Shown: positions 3,708 to 18,424 of the stretch, piece after piece | How the letters are laid out: the number at the start of each line of letters is the position of its first letter | Numbering within the stretch: the stretch's first letter is position 1 | From: Streptococcus sp. Marseille-P6264 | GTDB lineage: Bacteria; Bacillota; Bacilli; Lactobacillales; Streptococcaceae | Direction: 5' to 3' | Assembly: GCF_902460355.1 (NCBI RefSeq) | Contig: NZ_CABPTO010000001.1 | Span: forward strand, 186,001-250,000 | Length of the DNA: 64,000 nucleotides | Program-made: the position numbers and the translations under genes | The notes under the pieces: generated by a model | The model's input: only the letters and a program-made list of their open reading frames with translations | Told to the model about the DNA's origin: nothing | Databases searched by the model: none

Positions 3708-3850
3708 TTCGTGCGATGAGTCGATATGCAGATTTTCTGCAAATTGAAGCATGGGAGGTCATAACGCAGGAGCGGACCTTGATCAGTTGTGTGAACCTGC
3801 TGATCACACGAAAGTGCCCCTATCCCCAGTCTACGGATTGGGGATTTTTC
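3708..3850 (+). ncRNA. Structured small RNA, probably the asd RNA motif
   Basis: About 140 bases with promoter and terminator but no coding frame. The 5' strand at 3707-3720 (TTTCGTGCGATGAG) pairs with the 3' strand at 3800-3813 with two mismatches, closing a long helix. Inside are a GCAG/CTGC hairpin (3729-3740) and a GGTC/GACC stem. The terminator at 3822-3850 has a 10-bp stem capped by a C(UACG)G tetraloop, then T5. An RNA class called the asd motif is known from lactic acid bacteria in front of asd genes, and this RNA lies about 370 bases before asd. The class name rests on position and overall look; a covariance search would settle it. A 6S-like RNA is the alternative. Confidence 0.6.
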
Positions 3851-7873: not shown

Positions 7874-8212
7874 ATGAAAGTTATTAAACGTAGTGGGGAA
7901 GTCGTTGATTTTGACCCAGATAAAATCTATCAAGCGGTATTAAAAGCAGCTCAAACTGTTTATGTCTTGACAGACGACCTCCGTCAAAATCTAGCCTTGG
8001 TGACAAAAAAAGTCGTGTTAGATTTGGAAGAAGCCAAGGTTGAGCGTGCGACTATCAGTATGATTCAGTCTATGGTTGAAAATCGTCTCTTGGGAGCAGG
8101 TTATATCACCATTGCTGAGCATTATATTTCTTACCGCTTGCAGCGTGATTTGGAGCGCAGTGGTTACGGTGATCATATCGCTGTCCATTTGCATTTTGAG
8201 CAAATCCGATAA
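7874..8212 (+). CDS. Stand-alone ATP-cone domain protein
   Basis: 112 residues made almost entirely of one ATP-cone domain: 'VIKRSGEVVDFDPDKIYQAV' at the N-terminus, a middle helix region and 'GYITIAEHYISYRLQRD' near the end. ATP-cones sense ATP/dATP in ribonucleotide reductases and in NrdR. Here neither the reductase nor the NrdR zinc ribbon is attached. It may be a nucleotide-sensing accessory or regulator, but nothing in the context proves it. A strong terminator follows. Confidence 0.8.
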   Translation: MKVIKRSGEVVDFDPDKIYQAVLKAAQTVYVLTDDLRQNLALVTKKVVLDLEEAKVERATISMIQSMVENRLLGAGYITIAEHYISYRLQRDLERSGYGDHIAVHLHFEQIR

Positions 8213-8220
8213 AAATGCTG

Positions 8221-8248
8221 AAAAGCCCACATGGGCTTTTTCTTTTTT
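8221..8248 (+). terminator. Terminator after the ATP-cone gene
   Basis: AAAAGCCCA and TGGGCTTTT arms around CA, then a T-rich tail. Confidence 0.85.
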
Positions 8249-8295
8249 TAAACTCAATATAAAAAGTCAGTTCAAGGTAGATCTTTCTTCAAAGT

Positions 8296-8311
8296 TTGTA
8301 ACCGCATTCAA
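8296..8311 (+). promoter_or_regulatory. Distal cre-like site (CcpA)
   Basis: TTGTAACCGCATTCAA fits the consensus WTGNAARCGNWWWCAW at all but one base (C for R). It lies about 110 bases upstream of the -35 of the acyl-CoA dehydrogenase promoter. Confidence 0.4.
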
Positions 8312-8407
8312 AGATTTTTTCCTAGTTTTTATTAGAAAAAGACCTTTCAAAGCCAGTCAAATCAATATGTATAATCTCAACTTATGGTCTTATTAATCTT
8401 TCTTAAG

Positions 8408-8436
8408 TAGACATTATAACATATTAGATATAAAAT
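8408..8436 (+). promoter_or_regulatory. Promoter of the acyl-CoA block
   Basis: TAGACA at 8408-8413, 17-base spacer, TAAAAT at 8431-8436. The next cre-like site starts on the last bases of the -10. Confidence 0.6.
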
Positions 8437-8450
8437 GAAAGCGTCAACAA
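8435..8450 (+). promoter_or_regulatory. Promoter-overlapping cre site (CcpA)
   Basis: ATGAAAGCGTCAACAA matches the cre consensus with one mismatch (C at the first W). Overlap with the -10 is the classic position for catabolite repression. Confidence 0.65.
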
Positions 8451-8465
8451 ATACTGAGCCGCAAA

Positions 8466-8481
8466 ATGAAAGCGCTCTTAT
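8466..8481 (+). promoter_or_regulatory. Second downstream cre-like site
   Basis: ATGAAAGCGCTCTTAT shares AAAATGAAAGCG with the site 31 bases upstream; two mismatches to cre. It lies in the 5' leader of the acyl-CoA dehydrogenase gene. Confidence 0.45.
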
Positions 8482-8515
8482 TACAAATAAAAACTATACA
8501 AAAGGAGTCAATAAA

Positions 8516-9724
8516 ATGGCAACTAAAGAAGAAATTTTGCGTGAACTATACCCTGAGGATCTTTTCCACTATGCAGATGGCTTGACATTGGGAGAAGCTG
8601 AAGTATTACAAGAAACTCGTCGTTTGATTGAAAAACACCTTCGTCCTGTAATCAATGAATATTGGGAAGCACCTGATTTCCCATTCGAACAATTCTATGC
8701 TGTTGCTAAAGGCGCTCAAATTATGAACAACCCTAAATTGTTCGAAGGTCGCGAAGGCAACTACAAACCATCAGAACTTTATATCGCATTCTTGTATTTG
8801 GAATTAGCTCGTTTTGATGCGTCTATAGCAACTTTCTTCACAGTTCATGGTGGACTTTGCTACAACACAATCTTGCTTGGTGGTGACGAGCGTCAACAAA
8901 AAGAATTCCTTCCTAAATTGGCTGCATTTGACTGGCAAGGATGTTTCGCTTTGACTGAGCCGTTGTCAGGTTCTGACATTGCTGGAGGTCTTGCTACAAC
9001 AGCTGAGCGTGTTGGCGATAAATGGATCTTGAACGGAGAAAAACGTTGGATCGGTGGATCAGATACAGCTGATGTTGTTCCAGTATTTGCCCGCGACGTT
9101 GAAGATGGAAAAGTGAAATGCTTTATCGTTCGTAAGGGAGCTCCTGGATATCATGCAGAACCAATCCCACACAAGATTGCTCTTCGTTGTGTCCGTAATG
9201 GCCATATTACCATGAAGAATGTAGAGGTTCCAGATTCAGACCGTTTGGTAAATATCAATGGTTTTGGTGATGTAGCCCGTATCTTGACCTTCACTCGTGC
9301 GGACGTTGCTCACATTGCTATGGGAGTGACTTGTGGATCATATGTTGCAGCTCTTAAATATGCTAAAGATCGTGAACAGTTCAAACGTCCAATCGCCAAA
9401 TTCCAAATTGTTCAAGAAAAATTGGCTCGTATGCAAGCAAATGCTGTAGCAGTTATTGCTTATTCAACTCGTATTGCAGAAATGCAAGAAGCAGGTAACG
9501 AATTGATGCTTAACTCTGCACTTGCTAAGATGCACAACTCATTGGTAATGCGCGAAACAGTTGCTCTTGCTCGTGAAACTTGCGGAGGTAATGGTATTAC
9601 ACTTGAGACAGACGTTGCTCGTTTCTTTGCAGATGCTGAATCAATCTATACATATGAAGGTTCACACGAAGTGAATGCCTTGATTGTTGGTCGTGAGATT
9701 ACTGGTGTTGGAGCATTTGTATAA
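8516..9724 (+). CDS. Acyl-CoA dehydrogenase, glutaryl-CoA dehydrogenase/short-chain oxidase-like
   Basis: 402 residues, a full acyl-CoA dehydrogenase that makes a 2,3-double bond in an acyl-CoA using FAD. The FAD/substrate loop 'ALTEPLSGSD' is at residues 145-154, and the catalytic base is Glu381 in 'YTYEGSHEVNALIVGREITG'. The C-terminal 'LIVGREITG' form is closer, from memory, to glutaryl-CoA dehydrogenase and plant short-chain acyl-CoA oxidase than to clostridial butyryl-CoA dehydrogenase. No electron-transfer flavoprotein gene is in the window. The start ATG 8516 has AAAGGAGT upstream; an in-frame ATG at 8435 lies inside the cre site. First gene of the acyl-CoA block; expected to be under CcpA. 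Confidence 0.9.
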   Translation: MATKEEILRELYPEDLFHYADGLTLGEAEVLQETRRLIEKHLRPVINEYWEAPDFPFEQFYAVAKGAQIMNNPKLFEGREGNYKPSELYIAFLYLELARFDASIATFFTVHGGLCYNTILLGGDERQQKEFLPKLAAFDWQGCFALTEPLSGSDIAGGLATTAERVGDKWILNGEKRWIGGSDTADVVPVFARDVEDGKVKCFIVRKGAPGYHAEPIPHKIALRCVRNGHITMKNVEVPDSDRLVNINGFGDVARILTFTRADVAHIAMGVTCGSYVAALKYAKDREQFKRPIAKFQIVQEKLARMQANAVAVIAYSTRIAEMQEAGNELMLNSALAKMHNSLVMRETVALARETCGGNGITLETDVARFFADAESIYTYEGSHEVNALIVGREITGVGAFV

Positions 9725-9734
9725 TAATGAATTT

Positions 9735-9783
9735 GGAACGATTGCTCAGCATTTGCTAGTGATCGTTCCGATTCTTTCTTTTT
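9735..9783 (+). terminator. Terminator after acyl-CoA dehydrogenase
   Basis: GGAACGAT (9735-9742) pairs with ATCGTTCC (9762-9769), followed by a T-rich stretch. It may be partial, because no strong promoter is evident before the next gene. Confidence 0.6.
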
Positions 9784-9818
9784 GAAGTTTATATTTTGAT
9801 AGTAAATAGGAGAAAAAA

Positions 9819-10667
9819 ATGAGTATTTCAAAAGTGATGATCATTGGATCAGGTCAAATGGGAAGCGGTATTGCACAAGTCTTTGCTCAATCAGGTTTCA
9901 CAGTTTATCTCAATGATATCAAGGAAGAGTTTGTTCAAAGAGGACTAGATGGTATCACCAAGCAATTGTCTCGTTCTGTTGAAAAAGGTCGTTTGTCAGC
10001 AGAAGATAAAGATAGCATTTTGGCAAATCTGATTCCTTCTACATCTTATGAAGATGCTAAACATGTTCAATTGGTTATTGAAGCAGCTACTGAAAATCGC
10101 GATATCAAATTGAGCATCTTTAAACAGTTGGATGAGTTGACTGATCCTCAAACTATTTTGGCTTCAAACACTTCATCCCTATCTATTACTGATATTGCAG
10201 CTGCGACAGTTCATCAAGAACGCGTTATTGGTATGCACTTCTTCAACCCAGCACCAGTTATGAAATTGGTTGAAGTTATTCGTGCGCTTCAAACATCAGA
10301 TGAAGTTGTGAAAGCTGTTCGTGAATTGACTGAAAAAATCGGTAAAACAGCTGTAGATGTGAAAGATTCGTATGGTTTTGTTGTGAACCGCGTCTTGATT
10401 CCAATGATCAATGAAGCTATTTTCATCTTAGGAGAAGGAATTGCTTCAGCAGAAGAAATTGACGAAGCAATGAAACTAGGTGCTAATCACCCAATTGGCC
10501 CATTGGCATTAGCTGACTTGATCGGTCTTGATGTCTGCTTGGCTATCATGGGAGTGTTAAACAATGGATTTGGAGATCCTAAGTATCGTCCTGCTCCACT
10601 TCTGAAGAAGATGGTTGAAGCTGGTAAGCTTGGTCGCAAGACTAAAGAAGGATTCTTTAAATACTAA
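9819..10667 (+). CDS. hbd: 3-Hydroxybutyryl-CoA dehydrogenase
   Basis: Interconverts acetoacetyl-CoA and 3-hydroxybutyryl-CoA with NAD(P)H. 282 residues, the exact size of the clostridial-type single-function enzyme. NAD-binding '[12 protein letters not shown]' at residues 9-20, catalytic Ser119 and His140 in '[15 protein letters not shown]', and the '[15 protein letters not shown]' segment with the conserved Asn. AGGAG precedes the ATG. The thiolase gene follows after 18 bases, so they are co-transcribed and act on successive intermediates. Confidence 0.94.
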
Positions 10668-10685
10668 GATAATAAGGAGCAAGAA

Positions 10686-11864
10686 ATGAAAGAAGCAGTT
10701 ATTGTAGCAGCAGTCCGCACACCTTTAGGTTCTTTTGGTGGAACTTTAAAAAATGTTTCGGCTGTTGATCTAGGTAGTTTAGTTATTAAAAGTGCTATTG
10801 AACGAGCAAATTTGAAACCAGAACAAGTTGATGAAGTTATCATGGGGAATGTTCTGGGTGCAGGTCTTGGTCAAAACGTAGCTCGCCAAATGAGTGTTAA
10901 CGCAGGTGTCCCGGTAGTTTCTCCAGCTTTCACTATTAACAAAGTTTGTGGCTCTGGTTTGAAAGCAGTTCAATTGGCGGCTCAAGCTGTATTGTGTGGA
11001 GATGCTGATATCGTTGTAGCCGGTGGGGCTGAAAACATGAGCCAAGCTCCTTATGTCCTTCAAAACCAACGTTGGGGCGCTCGTATGGGAGACTCTCAAG
11101 TAGTAGACACTATGCTCCGCGATGGCTTGACAGATGCCTTTGGATCCTTCCATATGGGAATTACAGCTGAAAACGTTGCCGAACAATATGGCATTACACG
11201 TGAAGACCAAGATAACTTTGCTGTGCAATCTCAAAAGCGTGCAGTTGCAGCGATCGAAGCTGGTCGTTTCAAAGAAGAAATTGTTCCTGTTGAAATTCCG
11301 CAACGTAAAGGCGATCCTATCGTATTTGATACAGATGAATTCCCAAGAAAAGACGCTTCTCTTGAAGGTTTGGGTAAATTGCGTCCAGTGTTCAAGAAGG
11401 ATGGTACTGTAACTGCTGGTAATGCCTCAGGTATTAACGACGGTGCAGCAGCAGTTGTTGTTATGAGTGCTGATAAAGCTAAAGAATTGGGCGTTCCAGT
11501 TTTGGCAACGATCAAATCTTACGCAAGCGCTGGACTAGATCCAAAAATTATGGGTTGTGGTCCGATTTACGCATCTCGCAAAGCCCTTGAAAAAGGCGGA
11601 TTTACAGTGGAAGATTTAGATTTGGTTGAATCCAATGAAGCATTTGCAGCGCAAGCATGTGCCGTTGGAAAAGAATTGAATCTTGATCCTGAAAAAGTCA
11701 ATGTAAATGGTGGTGCGATTGCTCTTGGTCACCCAATCGGTGCTTCAGGCTGCCGTATTTTGGTAACACTCTTGCATGAAATGCAAAAACGTGATGTTAA
11801 ACGTGGCCTTGCTACCCTTTGTATCGGTGGCGGAATGGGTACAGCGGTCATCGTAGAACGCTAA
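10686..11864 (+). CDS. Acetyl-CoA C-acetyltransferase (thiolase)
   Basis: Condenses two acetyl-CoA to acetoacetyl-CoA or cleaves it in reverse. 392 residues, the standard length of biosynthetic thiolases. The nucleophile Cys88 is in '[11 protein letters not shown]', His349 in '[14 protein letters not shown]' and the second cysteine Cys379 in 'CIGGGMG'; all three catalytic residues are present. AAGGAG upstream. It lies just after hbd. A second, mevalonate-pathway thiolase may exist elsewhere, so this copy is assigned to the short-chain acyl-CoA block by context. Confidence 0.93.
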
Positions 11865-11907
11865 ACCCTAGTTCATTTTTGAAGTTTTTCATTTGCTTCT
11901 ACTATAT

Positions 11908-11966
11908 AAACAAGTCCTATCGATGTGATGCTTTTTGCAAACAAGCCTTGATAGGGCTTGTTTTAT
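11908..11966 (+). terminator. Terminator after thiolase
   Basis: AAACAAGTCCTATC (11908-11921) is complementary, with one bulge-type mismatch, to GATAGGGCTTGTTT (11950-11963), followed by a T-rich stretch. The long loop contains another T5. Confidence 0.7.
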
Positions 11967-11997
11967 TCTTTGGGAAATTAATTTGAATATCAAAGCT

Positions 11998-12084
11998 ATA
12001 AGCTTAGCTTATTGATGTATAAATGATGATTAAGTAGACGAAGTGTGAGAAATGGTATATCATAATAATGTAAGCTCTTACATT
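11998..12084. promoter_or_regulatory. Two inverted repeats upstream of the crotonase gene, operator candidates
   Basis: ATAAGC-TTA-GCTTAT (11998-12012) is a perfect dyad. AATGTAAG-CT-CTTACATT (12067-12084) has perfect 8-base arms. Both lie in the 284-base gap before the enoyl-CoA hydratase gene; a TTGACA follows at 12102. They could bind the LysR protein encoded downstream or another regulator; no family can be named. Confidence 0.45.
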
Positions 12085-12148
12085 TTGGGTTTAAGTATTT
12101 GTTGACACCATACTTAGTCATTCAATTTTTATAAGTAGGAGCATAAAA

Positions 12149-12928
12149 ATGAGTAAAACTGTTTTATTAGAAGTTAAAAACGGGATTGGATATATCACTA
12201 TCAACCGTCCCGAAGCTTTGAACGCCCTGAGTTCTCAAGTTTTGGCTGATTTGAATGAAGTTCTTGATCAAGTTGAGAAAAGCGAAGAAATTCGCGTTGT
12301 TATCGTAACTGGAGCAGGAGAGAAAGCATTCGTCGCTGGAGCTGACATCAAGGAAATGGATTTGATGTCACCTATTCAAGCATTTGAATACATGACATTT
12401 GCAAATGATACATTTACTCGCCTTTCAGATTTACGCCAACCAACGATCGCAGTCCTCAATGGTTATGCACTCGGTGGTGGTATGGAGCTAGCACTTTCAA
12501 CAGATATCCGTATCGGATTTGAAAAAACAGTGGTTGGCTTCCCAGAAGTTGGCTTGGGTATTATTCCAGGATTTGCTGGTACTCAACGGATGTCTCGCTT
12601 GATTGGAACTAGCCGTGCCAAAGAACTTATTTTCACTGCTCGTACAGTGAAAGGTCAAGAAGCCTATGACTTAGGTATTCTTAACAAACTGGTTCCTGCT
12701 GAAGAATTGTTGTCTTCAGCTGAAGAATTAGCCGCAGCCATCATGAAGAATGCACCGTTAGCTGTTGAAAAAGCAAAACATGTCATTCAAGTTGGTGCGG
12801 AACTTCCTCTCAAAAATGCAATCCGTCTGGAAACAGAAGCAGAAGCATTGCTCTTCTCTACAGAAGACAAACTAGAAGGAATGCGTGCTTTTGTTGAAAA
12901 ACGCAAAGCTGTTTTCAATCGTAAGTAA
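12149..12928 (+). CDS. Enoyl-CoA hydratase (crotonase)
   Basis: Adds water to crotonyl-CoA to give 3-hydroxybutyryl-CoA, or the reverse. 259 residues, typical for short-chain crotonases. The oxyanion-hole segment 'FVAGADIKEM' is at residues 61-70, and both catalytic glutamates are present: Glu113 in 'LGGGMELALSTD' and Glu133 in 'FPEVGLGIIPG'. TAGGAG ribosome binding site. It opens a second transcription unit with the two CoA-transferase genes, 16 bases before the first of them. Confidence 0.93.
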   Translation: MSKTVLLEVKNGIGYITINRPEALNALSSQVLADLNEVLDQVEKSEEIRVVIVTGAGEKAFVAGADIKEMDLMSPIQAFEYMTFANDTFTRLSDLRQPTIAVLNGYALGGGMELALSTDIRIGFEKTVVGFPEVGLGIIPGFAGTQRMSRLIGTSRAKELIFTARTVKGQEAYDLGILNKLVPAEELLSSAEELAAAIMKNAPLAVEKAKHVIQVGAELPLKNAIRLETEAEALLFSTEDKLEGMRAFVEKRKAVFNRK

Positions 12929-12944
12929 AAGAGGAGGTATCAGC

Positions 12945-13670
12945 ATGAAATCAGTTGTATCATTATCAGAAGCTATTTCTAAGGTCAAATCGGGTGACAT
13001 CGTTGGAATTTCTGGATTCCTCGGAGTCGGTGAACCTTTTGAACTGATTGAAGAATTAGTGAAACAAAACCAGCAAGACTTGACTTTGGTATCAGTGGTA
13101 ACATCTCATCCTGGTAAAGAAGTTGGGGTTGGACGACTTTGTGAAAATCACCAAGTTAAAAAATATATTGCAGCCCACGTAGGAACATCTGCAGCAGCTC
13201 AACGTGAATATTTCAGCAAGACTATGGAAGTTGAATTTACACCGATGGGAACTGTTGTTGAACGTCTCCATGCAGCTGGAGCTGGCCTAGGAGCTGTCTT
13301 GACTCCGACAGGTGTTGGAACAATCCTTGAAAAAGATTATGAAAAAGTAGAACGTAATGGCCGCGAATATTTGGTCTATGATCCACTTAAAATCGATGTT
13401 GCCTTGATCAAAGCGACTAAAGCTGACAAATATGGCAACTTGTATATCGATGGCACTACGAAAAATATTTCCTTGCAATTAGCTCTCGCAGCAGATACTG
13501 TTATCGTTGAAGCGAATGAAATTGTTGAAGCTGGCGAAATTAATCCGAATGATATTTATATTCCGGGCATCCTTGTTGACTATGTCGTACAAAGCTTGAC
13601 TCCAGAAGAACACCATAAGATGATGGGTGATCTTTGGACTGAGACTAAAAAATTGGCGGGGGTGAACTAA
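12945..13670 (+). CDS. Acetoacetate/butyrate-type CoA-transferase, subunit A
   Basis: One half of a family I CoA-transferase that moves CoA between acetyl-, acetoacetyl- or butyryl-CoA and a free acid. 241 residues. N-terminal 'GDIVGISGFLGVGEPFELIEEL' region is the conserved GxGG-like CoA site, and 'PTGVGTILEKDYEK' followed by 'ALIKATKADKYGNL' are family hallmarks. The start is ATG 12945 behind GAGGAGGT. Subunit B starts one base after this stop, so both chains are made in equal amounts. Confidence 0.92.
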   Translation: MKSVVSLSEAISKVKSGDIVGISGFLGVGEPFELIEELVKQNQQDLTLVSVVTSHPGKEVGVGRLCENHQVKKYIAAHVGTSAAAQREYFSKTMEVEFTPMGTVVERLHAAGAGLGAVLTPTGVGTILEKDYEKVERNGREYLVYDPLKIDVALIKATKADKYGNLYIDGTTKNISLQLALAADTVIVEANEIVEAGEINPNDIYIPGILVDYVVQSLTPEEHHKMMGDLWTETKKLAGVN

Positions 13671-13671
13671 T

Positions 13672-14325
13672 ATGAAAGCAAAAGAAATTATTGCAAGACG
13701 TGTTGCACAAGAATTTAAAGATGGAGATGTTGTCAATCTAGGATTTGGTATTCCAAACGCATCTGCTGACTATATTCCTGACGGAGTAAACGTTATTCTT
13801 CAGGCTGAAAATGGAGCTCTTCGCTTTGGTGAAACACCAACGAAAGATAATTACAATCCAAACCTAGCAAACTCTGGAGGAGCGCCAATTACTCTCTTAC
13901 CTGGAGCAGCTTTGTTTGACTTGCAGACTTCCTTCGCGATCATCCGTGGTGGACACGTTGACGCGACCGTGCTAGGAGCTTTGGAAGTAAGTCAAGATGG
14001 TAGTATCGCTAACTGGATTATTCCAGGTAAGTTTGCACCAGGAATGGGTGGAGCTATGGACTTGTTGGTTGGAGCGAAACGTGTTATCGGTGCAATCCAG
14101 CATACTACCTCAGATGGTGAATCTAAACTCTTGCCAGAGTGCACTTTGCCACTTTCTGCTAAAGGAGTTCTTGATCTAGTCATTACAGAGTTGGCTGTCT
14201 TTGGTTTCCAAGATGGTAAGTTCCTCTTGAAAGAACTTGCTCCTGGCGTTACCTTAGAGGAAGTGCTTGAAAAGACAGCAGGAGAAGTAATTGTTTCAGA
14301 AGACTTGAAAACGATGTCAATCTAA
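13672..14325 (+). CDS. Acetoacetate/butyrate-type CoA-transferase, subunit B
   Basis: The catalytic half of the CoA-transferase. 217 residues. The active glutamate that carries the acyl-CoA thioester is Glu46 in 'LQAENGALRFG', preceded by the 'VNLGFGIPNASADYIP' CoA-binding segment; 'GGHVDATVLGALEVSQDG' and 'GMGGAMDL' further on are also family features. The gene starts one base after subunit A, with the ribosome binding site inside the upstream gene. It ends the crotonase-transferase unit. Confidence 0.93.
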   Translation: MKAKEIIARRVAQEFKDGDVVNLGFGIPNASADYIPDGVNVILQAENGALRFGETPTKDNYNPNLANSGGAPITLLPGAALFDLQTSFAIIRGGHVDATVLGALEVSQDGSIANWIIPGKFAPGMGGAMDLLVGAKRVIGAIQHTTSDGESKLLPECTLPLSAKGVLDLVITELAVFGFQDGKFLLKELAPGVTLEEVLEKTAGEVIVSEDLKTMSI

Positions 14326-14421
14326 TAAAGTTAGTAAGCAATTATTCTGCTCTTTCTCTGAAAGTGTGTTACTATGTGTTTATGACAACTTGAGCGATGA
14401 TTAGTTTTTAATCAGAATACT

Positions 14422-14466
14422 AGCAACTGGTCATCATGCTTTCGAGGGCCAGTTGCTGTTTTATTT
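14422..14466 (+). terminator. Terminator between CoA-transferase and LysR genes
   Basis: AGCAACTGG (14422-14430) and CCAGTTGCT (14449-14457) are perfectly complementary, followed by GTTTTATTT. It ends 45 bases before the LysR start. Confidence 0.8.
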
Positions 14467-14510
14467 ATGGCAAATTACCTCGTAAAAATTTGAAAGATGG
14501 GAGACGAAAA

Positions 14511-15425
14511 GTGGATATAATTCAAATGACTTACTTTATCAATATCGTCGAATGTGGATGCAATCTTTCTATAGCGGCTAAGAAAATTCATATCAGTCAG
14601 TCAGCCTTGAGTCAGTTTGTCACAAATTTTGAATCAACGGAAGGAATCCAGCTCTTCAATCGTAGAAATGGAAGATTAGAGAGTCTGACGGAAGCTGGTG
14701 GTAAGATTTACCGCTTTGCCACAGAGATTGTCAACCGGCATGAAGAGATGCAATCAATGATTCATATGGAAGCCCTCAAACAAAAAGGGACCTTTAACTT
14801 GGGCATTCCATCATTGATTTTACGTGTATATTTTTCTAGTATTTTACCAAAGTTCTTACAAGACAATCCGCAAGTTAACATTCAGGTTACTGAGGATGGA
14901 GGTAATGAATTGCGCCAAAAGTTGGTTACGGGTGATTTGAATTTTGCGGTAGTGATTGAACCTACCAACCTGGATCCAAAGAAATATGAACAGTATATCA
15001 TCCAAGTTGATGAATACGTAGCTTATATGGATAAGAATCATCCTTTGGCGGACAAAGAATTATTGGAATGGAAAGATATAGCTCAGTACGGTTTAGCGAC
15101 CTTTAATAAATCATTTACAACCTACGATTTAATCACTGAAAAATTAAAGAGTAAAAAGATAAAAGCGAATTTTGCCTATTTATCATCGACATGGGATTTC
15201 TTGATAGAGTCAACTTATCAAAACGATATGATTGCACTTTTACCTCGTCCTTTGGAGTATTTTGTCGATAAGAATAAATTCAAGGTTGTGCGCTTTAAGG
15301 ATCCGGTGCCTTTCAATATTTGGTTCTGCCGGCCTTATAAAGCAAACTATAATGAGGTAGAAGCATACGTATATGAAGAGCTTTTAAAAGGTTATTATCA
15401 GCCTCTTTCTGAGCCACATTCATAG
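14511..15425 (+). CDS. LysR-family transcriptional regulator
   Basis: 304 residues with GTG start at 14511, chosen because GGGAG stands at 14500 and the product then begins right at the winged helix ('IIQMTYFINIVECGCNLSIAAKK'). DNA-binding helix-turn-helix around residues 18-40 ('ISQSALSQFVTNFE'), linker, then a type 2 periplasmic-binding-like effector domain. The likely targets are the acyl-CoA genes on one or both sides, with an acyl-CoA or short acid as effector, by context. It is on the same strand as its neighbours, not divergent, and the next gene starts 11 bases later. Confidence 0.88.
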   Translation: MDIIQMTYFINIVECGCNLSIAAKKIHISQSALSQFVTNFESTEGIQLFNRRNGRLESLTEAGGKIYRFATEIVNRHEEMQSMIHMEALKQKGTFNLGIPSLILRVYFSSILPKFLQDNPQVNIQVTEDGGNELRQKLVTGDLNFAVVIEPTNLDPKKYEQYIIQVDEYVAYMDKNHPLADKELLEWKDIAQYGLATFNKSFTTYDLITEKLKSKKIKANFAYLSSTWDFLIESTYQNDMIALLPRPLEYFVDKNKFKVVRFKDPVPFNIWFCRPYKANYNEVEAYVYEELLKGYYQPLSEPHS

Positions 15426-15436
15426 AGGGAGAATTG

Positions 15437-16549
15437 ATGATGAAGTCCAGTACTAAAACAGCAGCATTGAGTTCATATGTAAATACAGCTATTAGAGACT
15501 ACATGAAAAATCATGATGAGTCAGTCGACTTTCCTCAGGAGATTTGGGAAGAATTAACGACGGATTTGGATATTTTTTCACCGATTTTGTCAGAAGACGA
15601 CCAGGTTTTGGCTTCTGATTTTATCAGCTCTATTCGAATGATTTCGAATGAGTTTCCAGCTCTTTCAACTATATTGCTGACCCAAGGTTGTTATGGTGTT
15701 TATCCGATTTTGAATTTTGGTACGGGGCAACAGAAAGAGCGTTATCTGGACAAGTTGGTAAAGGGAACTTGTATAGCGGGTCTTGGATTCTCTGAATCTA
15801 AACATCTAAATACTTTGGCAGATTTGGAGACCTATGCGATTAAGACAGAGACAGGTTGGCAACTTTCGGGAGAAAAAGCTAAGGTGTCAAATAGCAGCAT
15901 TGCGGACATTCTCTTGGTCTTAGCCAAAGTAAGAGAGGCTGGAAAGCCTGATTCCTACGGATTCTTCATTGTGGAGACGAGTGCTTCAGGTGTGCTCATT
16001 GGTGAGCAGATAGAAAAGCAGGGTTTACTAGGACTTCCACTAAGTTCTGTTACCTTGGACAAGGTAAACCTACCAGAAACTGCTTTATTAGGCGGAGTCT
16101 TGGCTGGAAATGAACAATTTAATAACATTATAAAGAATATGCAACTCGGCTTGAGTGCGGTTGCTTTAGGAGTTGCGGAGGGCGCCTTTAATAAGGGCCT
16201 TGAGTTTGCACGTGTAAAAAGAGGATTTGGCAAGCGACTGATGGATGTCGAAGTGCATCAGTACAAGTTTGCAGATTTGTACAATAAACTTTCTGCTGCG
16301 GATGCTTATTTTTCGTCCTATCCCAATCAAATAGAAGAAGATTCCAAGTTTGTTTCACGGATAAAGCTATATATGACTAAAGTAGCGCTAGAGGTTACAG
16401 AGGAAATCCTCCGTCTTATCGGACCTTTACAAAAATTTGATCATGTGAACATCAAACGCTATTTTAAAGATGCTGAAATTATTGAGAATTATGGACGGTC
16501 AGGAAATTCGATCAGAAAAGAAATCGCAGAAAGATGGTTAAAGGAGTAA
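15437..16549 (+). CDS. Acyl-CoA dehydrogenase-like protein without catalytic glutamate
   Basis: 370 residues with the overall acyl-CoA dehydrogenase pattern: 'VALGVAEGAFNKGLEFARVKRGFGKRL' (about 242-268) and 'YFKDAEIIENYG' near the end. At the place of the usual catalytic Glu ('YEG' in MCAD type) it reads Tyr352-Gly353-Arg354. At the alternative Glu of isovaleryl-CoA type enzymes it has Met235. The FAD loop 'TEPxxGSD' is replaced by 'FSESKHLNT' (118-126). So it may be inactive as a dehydrogenase or do another reaction on an acyl-CoA. It lies between the LysR gene and a lactonase-like gene (3-base gap). Confidence 0.8.
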   Translation: MMKSSTKTAALSSYVNTAIRDYMKNHDESVDFPQEIWEELTTDLDIFSPILSEDDQVLASDFISSIRMISNEFPALSTILLTQGCYGVYPILNFGTGQQKERYLDKLVKGTCIAGLGFSESKHLNTLADLETYAIKTETGWQLSGEKAKVSNSSIADILLVLAKVREAGKPDSYGFFIVETSASGVLIGEQIEKQGLLGLPLSSVTLDKVNLPETALLGGVLAGNEQFNNIIKNMQLGLSAVALGVAEGAFNKGLEFARVKRGFGKRLMDVEVHQYKFADLYNKLSAADAYFSSYPNQIEEDSKFVSRIKLYMTKVALEVTEEILRLIGPLQKFDHVNIKRYFKDAEIIENYGRSGNSIRKEIAERWLKE

Positions 16550-16552
16550 AAA

Positions 16553-17467
16553 ATGACAGAACTCAAATTACAAGAGTATCAGTTTGGGGAAATGAAGCTG
16601 ACTTGGTTGCGTGGAGCGGATAAGCTCACAGATGCAGGTACCTTATTTGGCCCTGTACCAAAGGTTGTTTGGTCGCGTTATTATCCAACAACAGAAGAAA
16701 ATATGATGGCTGAACTGACAGATCCGATTTTGATTCAATACAAGGGGCAGAATTATTTAATTGATGCGAGTTTTGATACGGCTAAGCTGTCTGATAAACA
16801 ACGCCGCAATCTAGGTATTCTTTCTGAGAGCCGTGTTGAAGAAAGTTTGGCTCTCTTGGGATTAAAACCGGAAGATATTTCCCATATTTTAATGACGCAC
16901 ATGCACCATGATCACTCTGGCGGTTTGACTAGAATAGATGAAAACAATCAGCTTGTTTCAAAATTCCCAAATGCAAAGATTTTTGTAAATGAGATAGAAT
17001 GGTACGAAATGAGAAATCCCAATAGTCGGACAAGGGGAACTTATCTGAAGGAAAATTGGGAGCCAATCCAGGATCAGGTTGAAACCTTTACTGAATATCT
17101 GAACGTCATTCCAGAAATTCAAATGGTTCATACAGGCGGTCACAGTAACGGTCACAGCATCATCTTACTCAAACAGGGCGAGGAAACCATGATTCATATG
17201 GCTGATCTGGTGTTGACTCATGCCCATCGGAAACCCCTATGGGTTGCTGCGGTAGATGATTATCCAATGCGTTCAATCGTAGCTAAGGACAAATGGCTCA
17301 ATGAAGCTTTTGAAAACCACTATAAGTTTTTCTTTTACCACGATCAATTTTTCGCAGTTGCTGAGTTTGATCAGACTGGCGAGGAATTTGTTGATTATGT
17401 GACTAGGATTCGTGAACCGCGAGTTCCATTCACCGATAAACAGGATCGCAAACCGTCATTTTTATAA
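16553..17467 (+). CDS. Metallo-beta-lactamase-fold hydrolase, YtnP-like lactonase
   Basis: 304 residues. The zinc motif HxHxDH is intact (His116, His118, Asp120, His121 in 'THMHHDHSGG'); further ligands are in 'VHTGGHSNGHS' and the Asp of 'HMADLVLTH'. The N-terminus ('LTWLRGADKLTDAGTLFGPV' region with 'PKVVWSRYYP') resembles Bacillus YtnP, described as a lactonase that quenches quorum signals. By context it could instead hydrolyse a lactone or thioester of the acyl-CoA pathway. It ends the LysR operon, and a terminator follows. Confidence 0.85.
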   Translation: MTELKLQEYQFGEMKLTWLRGADKLTDAGTLFGPVPKVVWSRYYPTTEENMMAELTDPILIQYKGQNYLIDASFDTAKLSDKQRRNLGILSESRVEESLALLGLKPEDISHILMTHMHHDHSGGLTRIDENNQLVSKFPNAKIFVNEIEWYEMRNPNSRTRGTYLKENWEPIQDQVETFTEYLNVIPEIQMVHTGGHSNGHSIILLKQGEETMIHMADLVLTHAHRKPLWVAAVDDYPMRSIVAKDKWLNEAFENHYKFFFYHDQFFAVAEFDQTGEEFVDYVTRIREPRVPFTDKQDRKPSFL

Positions 17468-17475
17468 GAATAGAG

Positions 17476-17516
17476 AATCGCTTCTGTCAGTTTGAGGGAG
17501 CGATTTTACTATTTTA
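17476..17516 (+). terminator. Terminator after the lactonase gene
   Basis: AATCGCT (17476-17482) pairs with AGCGATT (17499-17505), then a T-rich tail. Confidence 0.65.
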
Positions 17517-17532
17517 TTCTCTATTTTTTTGG

Positions 17533-17538
17533 TATAAT
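17533..17538 (+). promoter_or_regulatory. -10 box for rbgA
   Basis: Perfect TATAAT 35 bases before the rbgA start. No convincing -35. Confidence 0.5.
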
Positions 17539-17572
17539 GAGATACTAGAAGATTGTAAGAAAGAGGTTTTTA

Positions 17573-18424
17573 ATGGCAACGATTCAATGGTTTCCGGGGC
17601 ACATGTCCAAGGCTCGGAGACAGGTTCAAGAAAGTATTAAATTTGTAGATTTTGTGACGATTTTGGTAGATGCGAGGCTGCCTCTATCCAGTCAAAATCC
17701 TATGTTGACCAAAATTGTTGGGGACAAGCCTAAGTTGCTGATTTTAAATAAGGCCGACTTAGCGGATCCAAACTTAACCAAGGAATGGCAGGCCTATTTT
17801 GAAAGTCAGGGGATCAAAACCTTGGCCATTAACTCTAAGGAGCAATCTGCAGTCAAAAAAGTGACCGAAGCAGCTAAGAAATTGATGGCTGATAAGCTCG
17901 CTCGCCAGCGAGAAAGAGGAATTCAAATTGAGACTCTGCGAACTATGATTATCGGGATTCCCAATGCTGGAAAGTCAACGCTGATGAATCGGCTAGCTGG
18001 TAAGAAAATCGCAATAGTCGGCAATAAACCAGGGGTCACCAAAGGTCAGCAGTGGCTCAAGTCCAATAAGGATTTGGAAATTCTAGATACACCGGGGATT
18101 CTTTGGCCCAAATTTGAAGATGAAATGGTGGCTTTGAAACTCGCTTTGACGGGTGCTATCAAGGACAATTTGCTGCCCATGGACGAAGTTACTATTTTTG
18201 GACTCAATTATTTCAAAGAGCATTATCCTAAGGCACTGCAGGAGCGCTTTGAGCAGCTGGATTTAGAGCTGGAAGCGCCAGACATGATTATGGATATGAC
18301 GCAGAAACTAGGCTTTAGAGAGGACTACGATCGCTTTTACAGTCTCTTTGTCAAGGAAGTGCGTGATGGCCGCTTAGGACGTTATACACTGGATGGTCTG
18401 GAGGAATTGGATGGCCACGATTAA
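17573..18424 (+). CDS. rbgA: Ribosome biogenesis GTPase RbgA (YlqF)
   Basis: Helps the last steps of 50S ribosomal subunit assembly. 283 residues, a circularly permuted GTPase: the G4 motif 'NKAD' comes first (residues 59-62), then G1 'GIPNAGKST' (about 127-135), G2 and G3 'DTPG' (about 168-171). The N-terminal 'WFPGHMSKA' is diagnostic. AGAGG ribosome binding site. The rnhB start lies inside its 3' end (14-base overlap). Confidence 0.97.

What the first reader, a model, noticed from the sequence alone, without database searches (positions are those of the whole stretch)
15437..17467. Acyl-CoA dehydrogenase homologue without its catalytic base, paired with a lactonase
By my alignment the usual glutamate is Gly353, the alternative glutamate is Met235, and the FAD loop is altered. 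The gene sits in a LysR-led three-gene operon with a YtnP-like metallo-hydrolase. This suggests a non-redox job on an acyl-CoA or a signal molecule, possibly an unrecognised two-enzyme module.
Basis: partly seen in the sequence, partly recalled or inferred. Interest (0 to 1): 0.65.

Follow-up and report, generated by a model that had tools for sequence, protein, structure and literature searches.

The report
Baseless acyl-CoA dehydrogenase in streptococcal fat-burning cluster
Some streptococci and related bacteria keep a copy of a fat-burning enzyme that has lost its catalytic residue, and in streptococci much of its cofactor pocket, near a working-looking relative, which suggests the dead-looking copy has taken on a supporting or different job.

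Summary
The 370-residue acyl-CoA dehydrogenase homologue (15437-16549, "ACADx") has Gly353 where ordinary members have the catalytic Glu, Met235 at the alternative-base position, and eroded FAD motifs. This is a family trait: of 27 aligned members 26 have Gly and one Ala, none an acid at either site; 35 of 35 readable ordinary homologues keep Glu. ACADx is under purifying selection but is the least conserved gene of its cluster in 29 of 29 loci.

The setting was under-read. ACADx lies in a nine-gene short-chain beta-oxidation locus with a Glu-bearing FadE/acyl-CoA-oxidase-4-like enzyme; no ETF was found in 21 of 22 carriers searched. The hydrolase pairing is real (adjacent in 30 of 30 Streptococcus carriers) but not exclusive: five genomes keep LysR-hydrolase without ACADx. 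A 2025 S. [quoted passage not shown]

Best reading: an ETF-orphaned butyryl-CoA dehydrogenase, now non-dehydrogenating and probably a pseudoenzyme. A non-redox enzyme is not excluded. Glu-less acyl-CoA dehydrogenases are known, so this is a new variant.

The parts
15437..16549 (+). ACADx: acyl-CoA dehydrogenase homologue without catalytic Glu (Gly353; Met235 at the alternative base position), 370 aa
16553..17467 (+). YtnP-like metallo-beta-lactamase-fold hydrolase, HxHxDH motif; nearest solved relative 3esh, E 6.5e-63 (organism S. aureus by recall)
14511..15425 (+). LysR-family regulator (best NCBIfam model CidR, 140.3 bits against a cut-off of 415); GTG start chosen by eye from a ribosome-binding site
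8516..9724 (+). Glu-bearing FadE-type enzyme, passes NCBIfam Staph FadE; nearest solved relative Arabidopsis acyl-CoA oxidase 4; ATG start chosen by eye
9819..10667 (+). 3-hydroxybutyryl-CoA dehydrogenase (named from its sequence; not scanned against a family library)
   Evidence: name by recall
10686..11864 (+). acetyl-CoA acetyltransferase (thiolase)
12149..12928 (+). short-chain enoyl-CoA hydratase (crotonase)
12945..13670 (+). CoA-transferase subunit A (AtoD-like)
13672..14325 (+). CoA-transferase subunit B (AtoA-like)
8436..8480 (+). two cre-like (CcpA) sites, 8436-8449 and 8467-8480, one mismatch each, upstream of the FadE-type gene; a site at the nearer place in 7 of 16 other loci scanned
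   Evidence: consensus recalled
12069..12082 (+). cre-like palindrome, one mismatch, upstream of the crotonase gene; also in 7 of 16 other loci scanned
   Evidence: consensus recalled
14306..14319 (+). cre-like site, no mismatch, at the end of atoA and upstream of the LysR gene
   Evidence: consensus recalled
11939..11963 (+). terminator-like hairpin between thiolase and crotonase genes (z -2.5; 4 of 200 shuffles fold as well)
14422..14457 (+). terminator-like hairpin before the LysR gene (z -4.2; 0 of 200 shuffles)
17474..17507 (+). terminator-like hairpin after the hydrolase gene (z -3.4; 0 of 200 shuffles)

Best explanation
ACADx is a former butyryl-CoA dehydrogenase of a thl-bcd-hbd-crt operon. 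In a lineage of Lactobacillales that appears to do short-chain beta-oxidation without electron-transfer flavoprotein, an acyl-CoA-oxidase-4/FadE-like enzyme carries out the oxidation step and ACADx is freed from it. ACADx lost the catalytic Glu first (Gly or Ala in every member aligned), then in Streptococcus much of the FAD site, and is kept under purifying selection as a non-dehydrogenating protein: most likely a pseudoenzyme that keeps the fold and acyl-CoA cleft and supports the locus, by binding a CoA ester, by associating with its FadE-type paralogue, or by modulating the pathway. It is probably co-expressed with the locus under LysR and catabolite control. Shown: missing base, eroded FAD motifs, constant genomic setting, ETF not detected, selection; predicted: the fold. 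Inferred: loss of dehydrogenase activity, descent from a butyryl-CoA dehydrogenase, order of loss, pseudoenzyme role, co-expression here. Not shown: any binding, activity or partner.
For: No acid at either base position in 27 of 27; in a FastTree tree ACADx forms one clade beside ordinary butyryl-CoA-dehydrogenase-like enzymes, of which 35 of 35 readable keep Glu; the least eroded copy (L026) has C. difficile 5ol2_C, a butyryl-CoA dehydrogenase, as nearest solved relative (E 1.5e-78), with YGGT opposite YEGT; thl-ACADx-hbd-crt order in 5 of 6 carriers outside Streptococcus; Glu-bearing paralogue in 29 of 29 loci; ETF not found in 21 of 22 carriers; FAD-position retention 28% in 10 Streptococcus ACADx against 80% in five FadE-type neighbours; dN/dS 0.05-0.40 in 12 pairs, above 0.16 only where dS is 0.05 or less; residues R67, Q83, R267, W367 conserved in 14 of 14 ACADx compared and never the majority residue in 36 ordinary enzymes; model matches a solved butyryl-CoA dehydrogenase at Z 43.8, rmsd 2.8, 361 aligned; the probable S. 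anginosus orthologue rises about 10-fold together with thlA, HBD, LysR and ytnP (PMC12282319).
Against: No experiment. Four relatives outside Streptococcus (L022, L023, L025, L026) keep GGYG and NE(P/L)-like FAD motifs (retention 48%), so FAD binding and a non-redox reaction remain possible there. FAD positions in Streptococcus ACADx are not significantly more eroded than its other conserved positions (220 of 2000 random subsets as low). The FAD positions come from recalled MCAD numbers. The ordinary enzymes in the tree were chosen by similarity to ACADx, and branch supports were not read, so descent from butyryl-CoA dehydrogenase is a likely reading, not a test. The G088 copy is only 25% identical and lacks R67 and R267. 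The S. anginosus gene was equated with ACADx by gene order only.
Confidence: 0.5

Rival explanations
1. ACADx is an active non-redox or decarboxylating enzyme: the missing base is an adaptation, as in 3-sulfinopropionyl-CoA desulfinase or benzylmalonyl-CoA dehydrogenase, where a leaving group rather than a proton departs from the substrate.
For: Glu-less subfamilies with other chemistries exist: GGG in IaaF, AGG in the desulfinase, YGG in a pimeloyl-CoA branch (PMC8360864). Four ACADx outside Streptococcus keep about half of the FAD positions. Residues conserved in the clade only.
Against: IaaF contains FAD (PMC8360864); Streptococcus ACADx has lost most of the FAD positions examined, the second Gly of GGxG included. 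ACADx is the least conserved gene of the locus (29 of 29). Score to the desulfinase model is far below cut-off (105.7 against 600 bits).
Confidence: 0.2
2. ACADx is the non-catalytic subunit of a heteromeric acyl-CoA dehydrogenase with the FadE-type neighbour, like ChsE1/ChsE2, where only one subunit of each pair carries the Glu.
For: Both paralogues in the same locus in 29 of 29 carriers inspected; precedent described in PMC8399759.
Against: The FadE-type enzyme keeps both its own and the across-interface FAD motifs (which side is which is recalled), so it seems to need no partner to complete the site; the two are about 20% identical; 6 of 36 genomes with a FadE-type hit have no ACADx hit, one of them with a close (97%) copy in a decayed locus.
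Confidence: 0.15
3. ACADx is a decaying relict without a present function.
For: Least conserved gene of the locus; frameshifted in one carrier (G023); catalytic and FAD residues lost.
Against: dN/dS well below 1 in all 12 pairs with usable dS; one open reading frame in 28 of 29 loci inspected; residues conserved in the clade only; the probable S. anginosus orthologue is strongly regulated (PMC12282319).
Confidence: 0.1
4. One reading: ACADx and the lactonase form a two-enzyme module acting on a signal molecule (compare the S. anginosus authors' 'putative quorum-quenching synthesis system').
For: Adjacent in 30 of 30 Streptococcus carriers; the hydrolase's best NCBIfam model is YtnP.
Against: ACADx goes with the beta-oxidation locus and is not adjacent to the hydrolase in the six carriers inspected outside Streptococcus; LysR-hydrolase occurs without it in 5 genomes; hydrolase below the YtnP cut-off.
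Confidence: 0.05

Closest known systems
Butyryl-CoA dehydrogenase (e.g. 5ol2_C, C. difficile)
   Same: Whole fold (predicted); the less eroded relative L026 aligns over residues 13-370 at E 1.5e-78; thl-x-hbd-crt gene order in 5 of 6 carriers outside Streptococcus
   Different: Glu replaced by Gly; FAD motifs eroded in Streptococcus; ETF genes not found in 21 of 22 carriers
3-sulfinopropionyl-CoA desulfinase (5af7/5ahs)
   Same: Acyl-CoA dehydrogenase fold without the catalytic Glu (AGG motif, PMC8360864)
   Different: 105.7 bits against a cut-off of 600; different locus; FAD positions eroded in Streptococcus ACADx. Its key residues were not compared, its structure paper not held
Benzylmalonyl-CoA dehydrogenase IaaF
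   Same: Glu replaced by Gly; not ETF-dependent (PMC8360864)
   Different: GGG motif (Tyr also lost), FAD-containing, uses oxygen, in indoleacetate operons; ACADx keeps the Tyr and lies in a beta-oxidation locus
Pimeloyl-CoA dehydrogenase branch with YGG motif
   Same: Same Tyr-Gly-Gly as several ACADx (L026, L065-L070)
   Different: TIGR03203 (small subunit) score 59.6 against a cut-off of 652.7 bits; other pathway
ChsE1/ChsE2 heteromeric acyl-CoA dehydrogenases
   Same: One Glu-bearing and one Glu-less paralogue encoded together (PMC8399759, passages)
   Different: The FadE-type neighbour has complete motifs of its own; no evidence of a complex
S. aureus fadXDEBA locus
   Same: The Glu-bearing neighbour passes the Staph FadE model (662 against 600 bits); CoA transferase plus beta-oxidation genes
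   Different: No second acyl-CoA dehydrogenase among the five genes named for S. aureus (PMC12369327, passages seen)
YtnP-family lactonase
   Same: Metallo-hydrolase with HxHxDH, best NCBIfam hit NF047919
   Different: 368.5 bits, below the equivalog cut-off of 425

Membership tests
Acyl-CoA dehydrogenase superfamily (fold) | N-terminal, middle and C-terminal acyl-CoA dehydrogenase domains | tested here: met
   (all above cut-off); predicted fold
Functional acyl-CoA dehydrogenase | Catalytic Glu at the YEG or the isovaleryl/long-chain position | tested here: not met
   Gly353 and Met235; by sequence alignment
Functional acyl-CoA dehydrogenase | FAD-binding motifs (TEP-x-GS, W/F-I-T, R, Q-x-x-GGxG; recalled) | tested here: not met
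   28% of 16 positions kept in 10 Streptococcus ACADx, 48% in four others, 12% in G088's; sequence only, binding not tested
Functional acyl-CoA dehydrogenase | ETF partner in the genome (not required of oxidases) | tested here: not met
   PF00766 and PF01012 not found in 21 of 22 carriers, the window's genome included; controls rang in 10 of 14
3-sulfinopropionyl-CoA desulfinase | NCBIfam NF042439 equivalog cut-off (600 bits) | tested here: not met
   105.7 bits
Pimeloyl-CoA dehydrogenase small subunit | TIGR03203 cut-off (652.7 bits) | tested here: not met
   59.6 bits
Benzylmalonyl-CoA dehydrogenase (IaaF) | GGG motif and indoleacetate operon | tested here: not met
   Motif YGR, beta-oxidation locus; definition from PMC8360864
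ChsE-type heteromeric acyl-CoA dehydrogenase | Obligate alpha2-beta2 complex with shared FAD site | tested here: inconclusive
   Complex not testable; the neighbour has complete motifs of its own
YtnP quorum-quenching lactonase | NCBIfam NF047919 equivalog cut-off (425 bits) | tested here: not met
   368.5 bits
YtnP quorum-quenching lactonase | Hydrolysis of acyl-homoserine lactones | not testable with these tools
   biochemical

The most novel reading that the evidence does not exclude
A conserved pseudo-acyl-CoA dehydrogenase: a catalytically dead butyryl-CoA dehydrogenase kept as a dedicated acyl-CoA-binding partner or regulator of an ETF-independent, possibly peroxide-forming, short-chain beta-oxidation pathway in streptococci and relatives.
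Probability: 0.3. Interest if true: 0.6.

Novelty: new variant of a known kind. Interest (0 to 1): 0.42.

Why it matters
Streptococci are mostly regarded as sugar fermenters. The locus around ACADx looks like short-chain beta-oxidation without a detectable ETF, with a FadE-type enzyme whose nearest solved relative is an oxidase, so its electron acceptor (perhaps oxygen, giving peroxide) is an open and testable question. ACADx itself is a graded natural series, from Glu-less relatives that keep part of the FAD motifs to eroded ones, useful for asking what a dead acyl-CoA dehydrogenase can still do. It also offers another reading of the published LysR-dehydrogenase-YtnP trio than a quorum-quenching system.

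Tried and rejected
Rejected: sequence error or one-off mutation (Gly or Ala in 27 of 27); an alternative Glu at the isovaleryl position (none in 27); pseudogene (dN/dS; one open frame in 28 of 29 loci). marks one stop inside the match for G583 and for G696; by coordinates each is the gene's own stop codon at the end of the match, and both ORFs are 369 aa.

The profile search of the phylum (99 of 398 genomes at E 1e-70 or better) was meant to find Glu-less relatives elsewhere. Only the best 29 loci were read: 36 ordinary sequences, 35 with Glu and one truncated; the other matches were not read, so Glu-less relatives elsewhere are not excluded. A first extraction from these loci failed for matches on the minus strand and near contig ends and is replaced. 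The plasmid search gave 203 records, all under 60% identity, and was not followed. PADLOC gave nothing for ACADx and a weak LmuA match (E 1.1e-4) for the hydrolase. The permutation test for special depletion of FAD positions was not significant (220 of 2000). Promoter-like sites in 8100-17700 are no more than chance (19 against 23.4); terminator-like sites are 11 against 6.7, sd 2.7. A cre pattern without mismatches was not above chance (2 against 1.2).

Literature: no held paper has Streptococcus, acyl-CoA dehydrogenase, LysR, acetoacetate and short-chain fatty acid together; some searches listed 2 papers each, seen as listings only, none about a streptococcal Glu-less enzyme by title and abstract. 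Passages were seen of PMC12282319 (also its section 18 whole), PMC8360864, PMC11659651, PMC8399759, PMC12369327 and PMC13170264. No claim is made that ACADx is absent from print.

Rows dropped: from the 29 loci, L027 (frameshifted), L059 and L069 (near-duplicates) were left out of A1, which is the window plus 26 loci. The retention and residue counts use 14 ACADx (10 Streptococcus, 4 others) with G088's shown apart. The dN/dS pairs overlap (one sequence in several pairs); 4 of 16 pairs were saturated for ACADx and give no ratio.
Full report
WHAT IS THERE. The window lies in a Streptococcus genome near S. cristatus: six S. cristatus contigs carry the gene at 94-97% identity. ACADx is ATG 15437 to stop 16549, 370 aa; the metallo-hydrolase is 16553-17467. 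Four Pfam acyl-CoA dehydrogenase models match above cut-off. Residue 353 is Gly within ENYGRSG and residue 235 is Met. Alignments to solved enzymes put this motif opposite YEGT. A model built from alignment A1 has pLDDT 87.4 and pTM 0.89; Foldseek's best match is 2cx9 at E 2.1e-22 and VIA-align's is butyryl-CoA dehydrogenase 9w61_D at Z 43.8, rmsd 2.8, 361 residues, tied with other rows. The predicted fold is a complete acyl-CoA dehydrogenase. The tools give no residue-level superposition, so the missing Glu is shown by sequence alignment.

THE FAMILY. ACADx was found in 13 of 97 relatives at E 1e-30, in 6 of 398 genomes drawn from the class at 1e-40 and in 30 of 295 drawn from the family at 1e-40, all in one genus. 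In A1 (window plus 26 of 29 loci; L027, L059, L069 left out) the Glu column is Gly 26, Ala 1 and the alternative column Met 12, Leu 11, Asn 4. A FastTree tree places ACADx as one clade beside butyryl-CoA-dehydrogenase-like enzymes, away from the Glu-bearing neighbour (supports not read, comparison set chosen by similarity). Of 36 ordinary sequences from the best 29 loci of a phylum search, 35 have Glu and one is truncated. The relative in G093 (L026) has C. difficile butyryl-CoA dehydrogenase as nearest solved relative, E 1.5e-78, and keeps GGYG. The Streptococcus members compared have GPLQ, GAYS or similar there. Of 16 conserved FAD or catalytic positions (picked by recalled MCAD numbers), 10 Streptococcus ACADx keep 28%, four others 48%, G088's 12%, and five Glu-bearing neighbours 80%; at the other conserved positions the values are 42%, 56%, 35% and 40%. 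A permutation test did not show FAD positions to be lost faster than other positions (220 of 2000), so the statement is loss of constraint, not targeted loss.

SELECTION. By identity to the window's proteins ACADx is the least conserved cluster gene in 29 of 29 loci. Nei-Gojobori dN/dS is 0.05-0.40 over 12 overlapping pairs with usable dS, above 0.16 only where dS is 0.05 or less; four further pairs were saturated. One of 29 loci has a frameshifted copy (L027). Residues R67, Q83, R267 and W367 are the same in 14 of 14 ACADx compared and are not the usual residue in 36 ordinary enzymes; G088's copy, left out of that count, shares Q83 and W367 only. This is a maintained, fast-changing protein.

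THE LOCUS. Upstream on the same strand lie a Glu-bearing dehydrogenase, HBD, thiolase, crotonase and two CoA-transferase subunits (HBD named by recall). The first passes the NCBIfam Staph FadE model, 662 against 600 bits, and its nearest solved relative is Arabidopsis acyl-CoA oxidase 4, E 6.7e-89, ahead of glutaryl-CoA dehydrogenases. The 23 Streptococcus loci inspected show the same gene order; for one (L070) the first three genes were seen in a second stretch (L114). Four genomes of one other family (g14) have dehydrogenase-LysR-thl-ACADx-hbd-crt and then the hydrolase, with a CoA transferase before the hydrolase in the one read in full (L024); G093 has a similar order, and G088 a looser one without a hit to this hydrolase. 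The Glu-bearing paralogue was found with ACADx in 29 of 29 loci. ETF alpha and ETF domains were not found in 21 of 22 carriers searched, the window's genome included; the controls rang in 10 of 14 known genomes. G093 is the exception.

PAIRING. In the 295 family genomes, by comparing the lists by eye, the FadE-type enzyme (E 1e-100) occurs in 36: the 30 ACADx carriers and six others, five of them distant (47-53%); the sixth, G614 (97%), has a decayed locus with a split HBD and no crotonase or later genes in the stretch read. The hydrolase (E 1e-60) occurs in 36: next to ACADx in the 30 carriers, and in six without an ACADx hit, five of which show LysR beside the hydrolase and no beta-oxidation genes in the stretch read; the sixth is a partial hit. 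The pairing is therefore real but is one part of a larger association.

REGULATION. Terminator-like hairpins lie at 11939-11963, 14422-14457 and 17474-17507, giving three probable units, the third being LysR-ACADx-hydrolase. A recalled cre consensus with up to one mismatch gives 14 matches in the window against 4.3 expected, none of 100 shuffles as many; three palindromic places are counted twice, so there are 11 distinct places, and five of them lie between 8297 and 14319, before the FadE-type, crotonase and LysR genes. Sites before the first two genes recur in 7 of 16 other loci scanned and not in the other nine. A stricter pattern was not above chance (2 against 1.2). In S. anginosus KH1 the LysR, acyl-CoA dehydrogenase, YtnP, thlA and HBD genes are each about 10-fold or more higher in artificial SV than in modified SM (PMC12282319, section 18; I take these to be saliva and serum media, the definitions were not read), which fits one regulated locus; identity with ACADx is inferred from gene order.

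MECHANISM. I commit to a former butyryl-CoA dehydrogenase that lost its redox role in an ETF-less pathway and is kept as a non-dehydrogenating protein (0.5). A non-redox enzyme (0.2), a subunit of the FadE-type enzyme (0.15), a relict (0.1) and a signal module (0.05) are the rivals. No activity, ligand or partner has been shown.

COMPARISON. Glu-less acyl-CoA dehydrogenases are known: PMC8360864 lists isovaleryl (GAG), desulfinase (AGG), carnitine (SGG), pimeloyl (YGG) and IaaF (GGG) branches. ACADx does not pass the desulfinase and pimeloyl small-subunit models and does not have the IaaF motif or setting; the carnitine branch was not tested beyond NF002885 (62.5 against 540 bits). Heteromeric enzymes with one Glu-less subunit are described in PMC8399759. 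The variant here is a Glu-less, FAD-eroded butyryl-CoA dehydrogenase relative fixed in a beta-oxidation locus of genomes without detectable ETF.

Noticed in passing
8516-9724: The Glu-bearing FadE-type enzyme is nearest to a plant short-chain acyl-CoA oxidase, in a genome where no ETF was found; it may pass electrons to oxygen.
   Followed up: partly
L065:4536-5732, L028:4604-5791: An MFS transporter of the lactate/oxalate-formate type sits in the locus of one Streptococcus (between thiolase and crotonase), and a similar-looking ORF lies in G088.
   Followed up: partly
L125-L129: LysR and YtnP-like hydrolase genes stand together without ACADx or beta-oxidation genes nearby in five Streptococcus genomes; in the three read further (L125, L127, L129) they lie beside what look like holA and sodA (names recalled).
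   Followed up: partly
L105:11178-12039: In G614 the beta-oxidation locus is decaying: HBD is split into two ORFs and the genes after thiolase are not in the stretch.
   Followed up: no
3711-3849: Rfam asd/MarS small RNA (RF01732, 122.3 bits).
   Followed up: no
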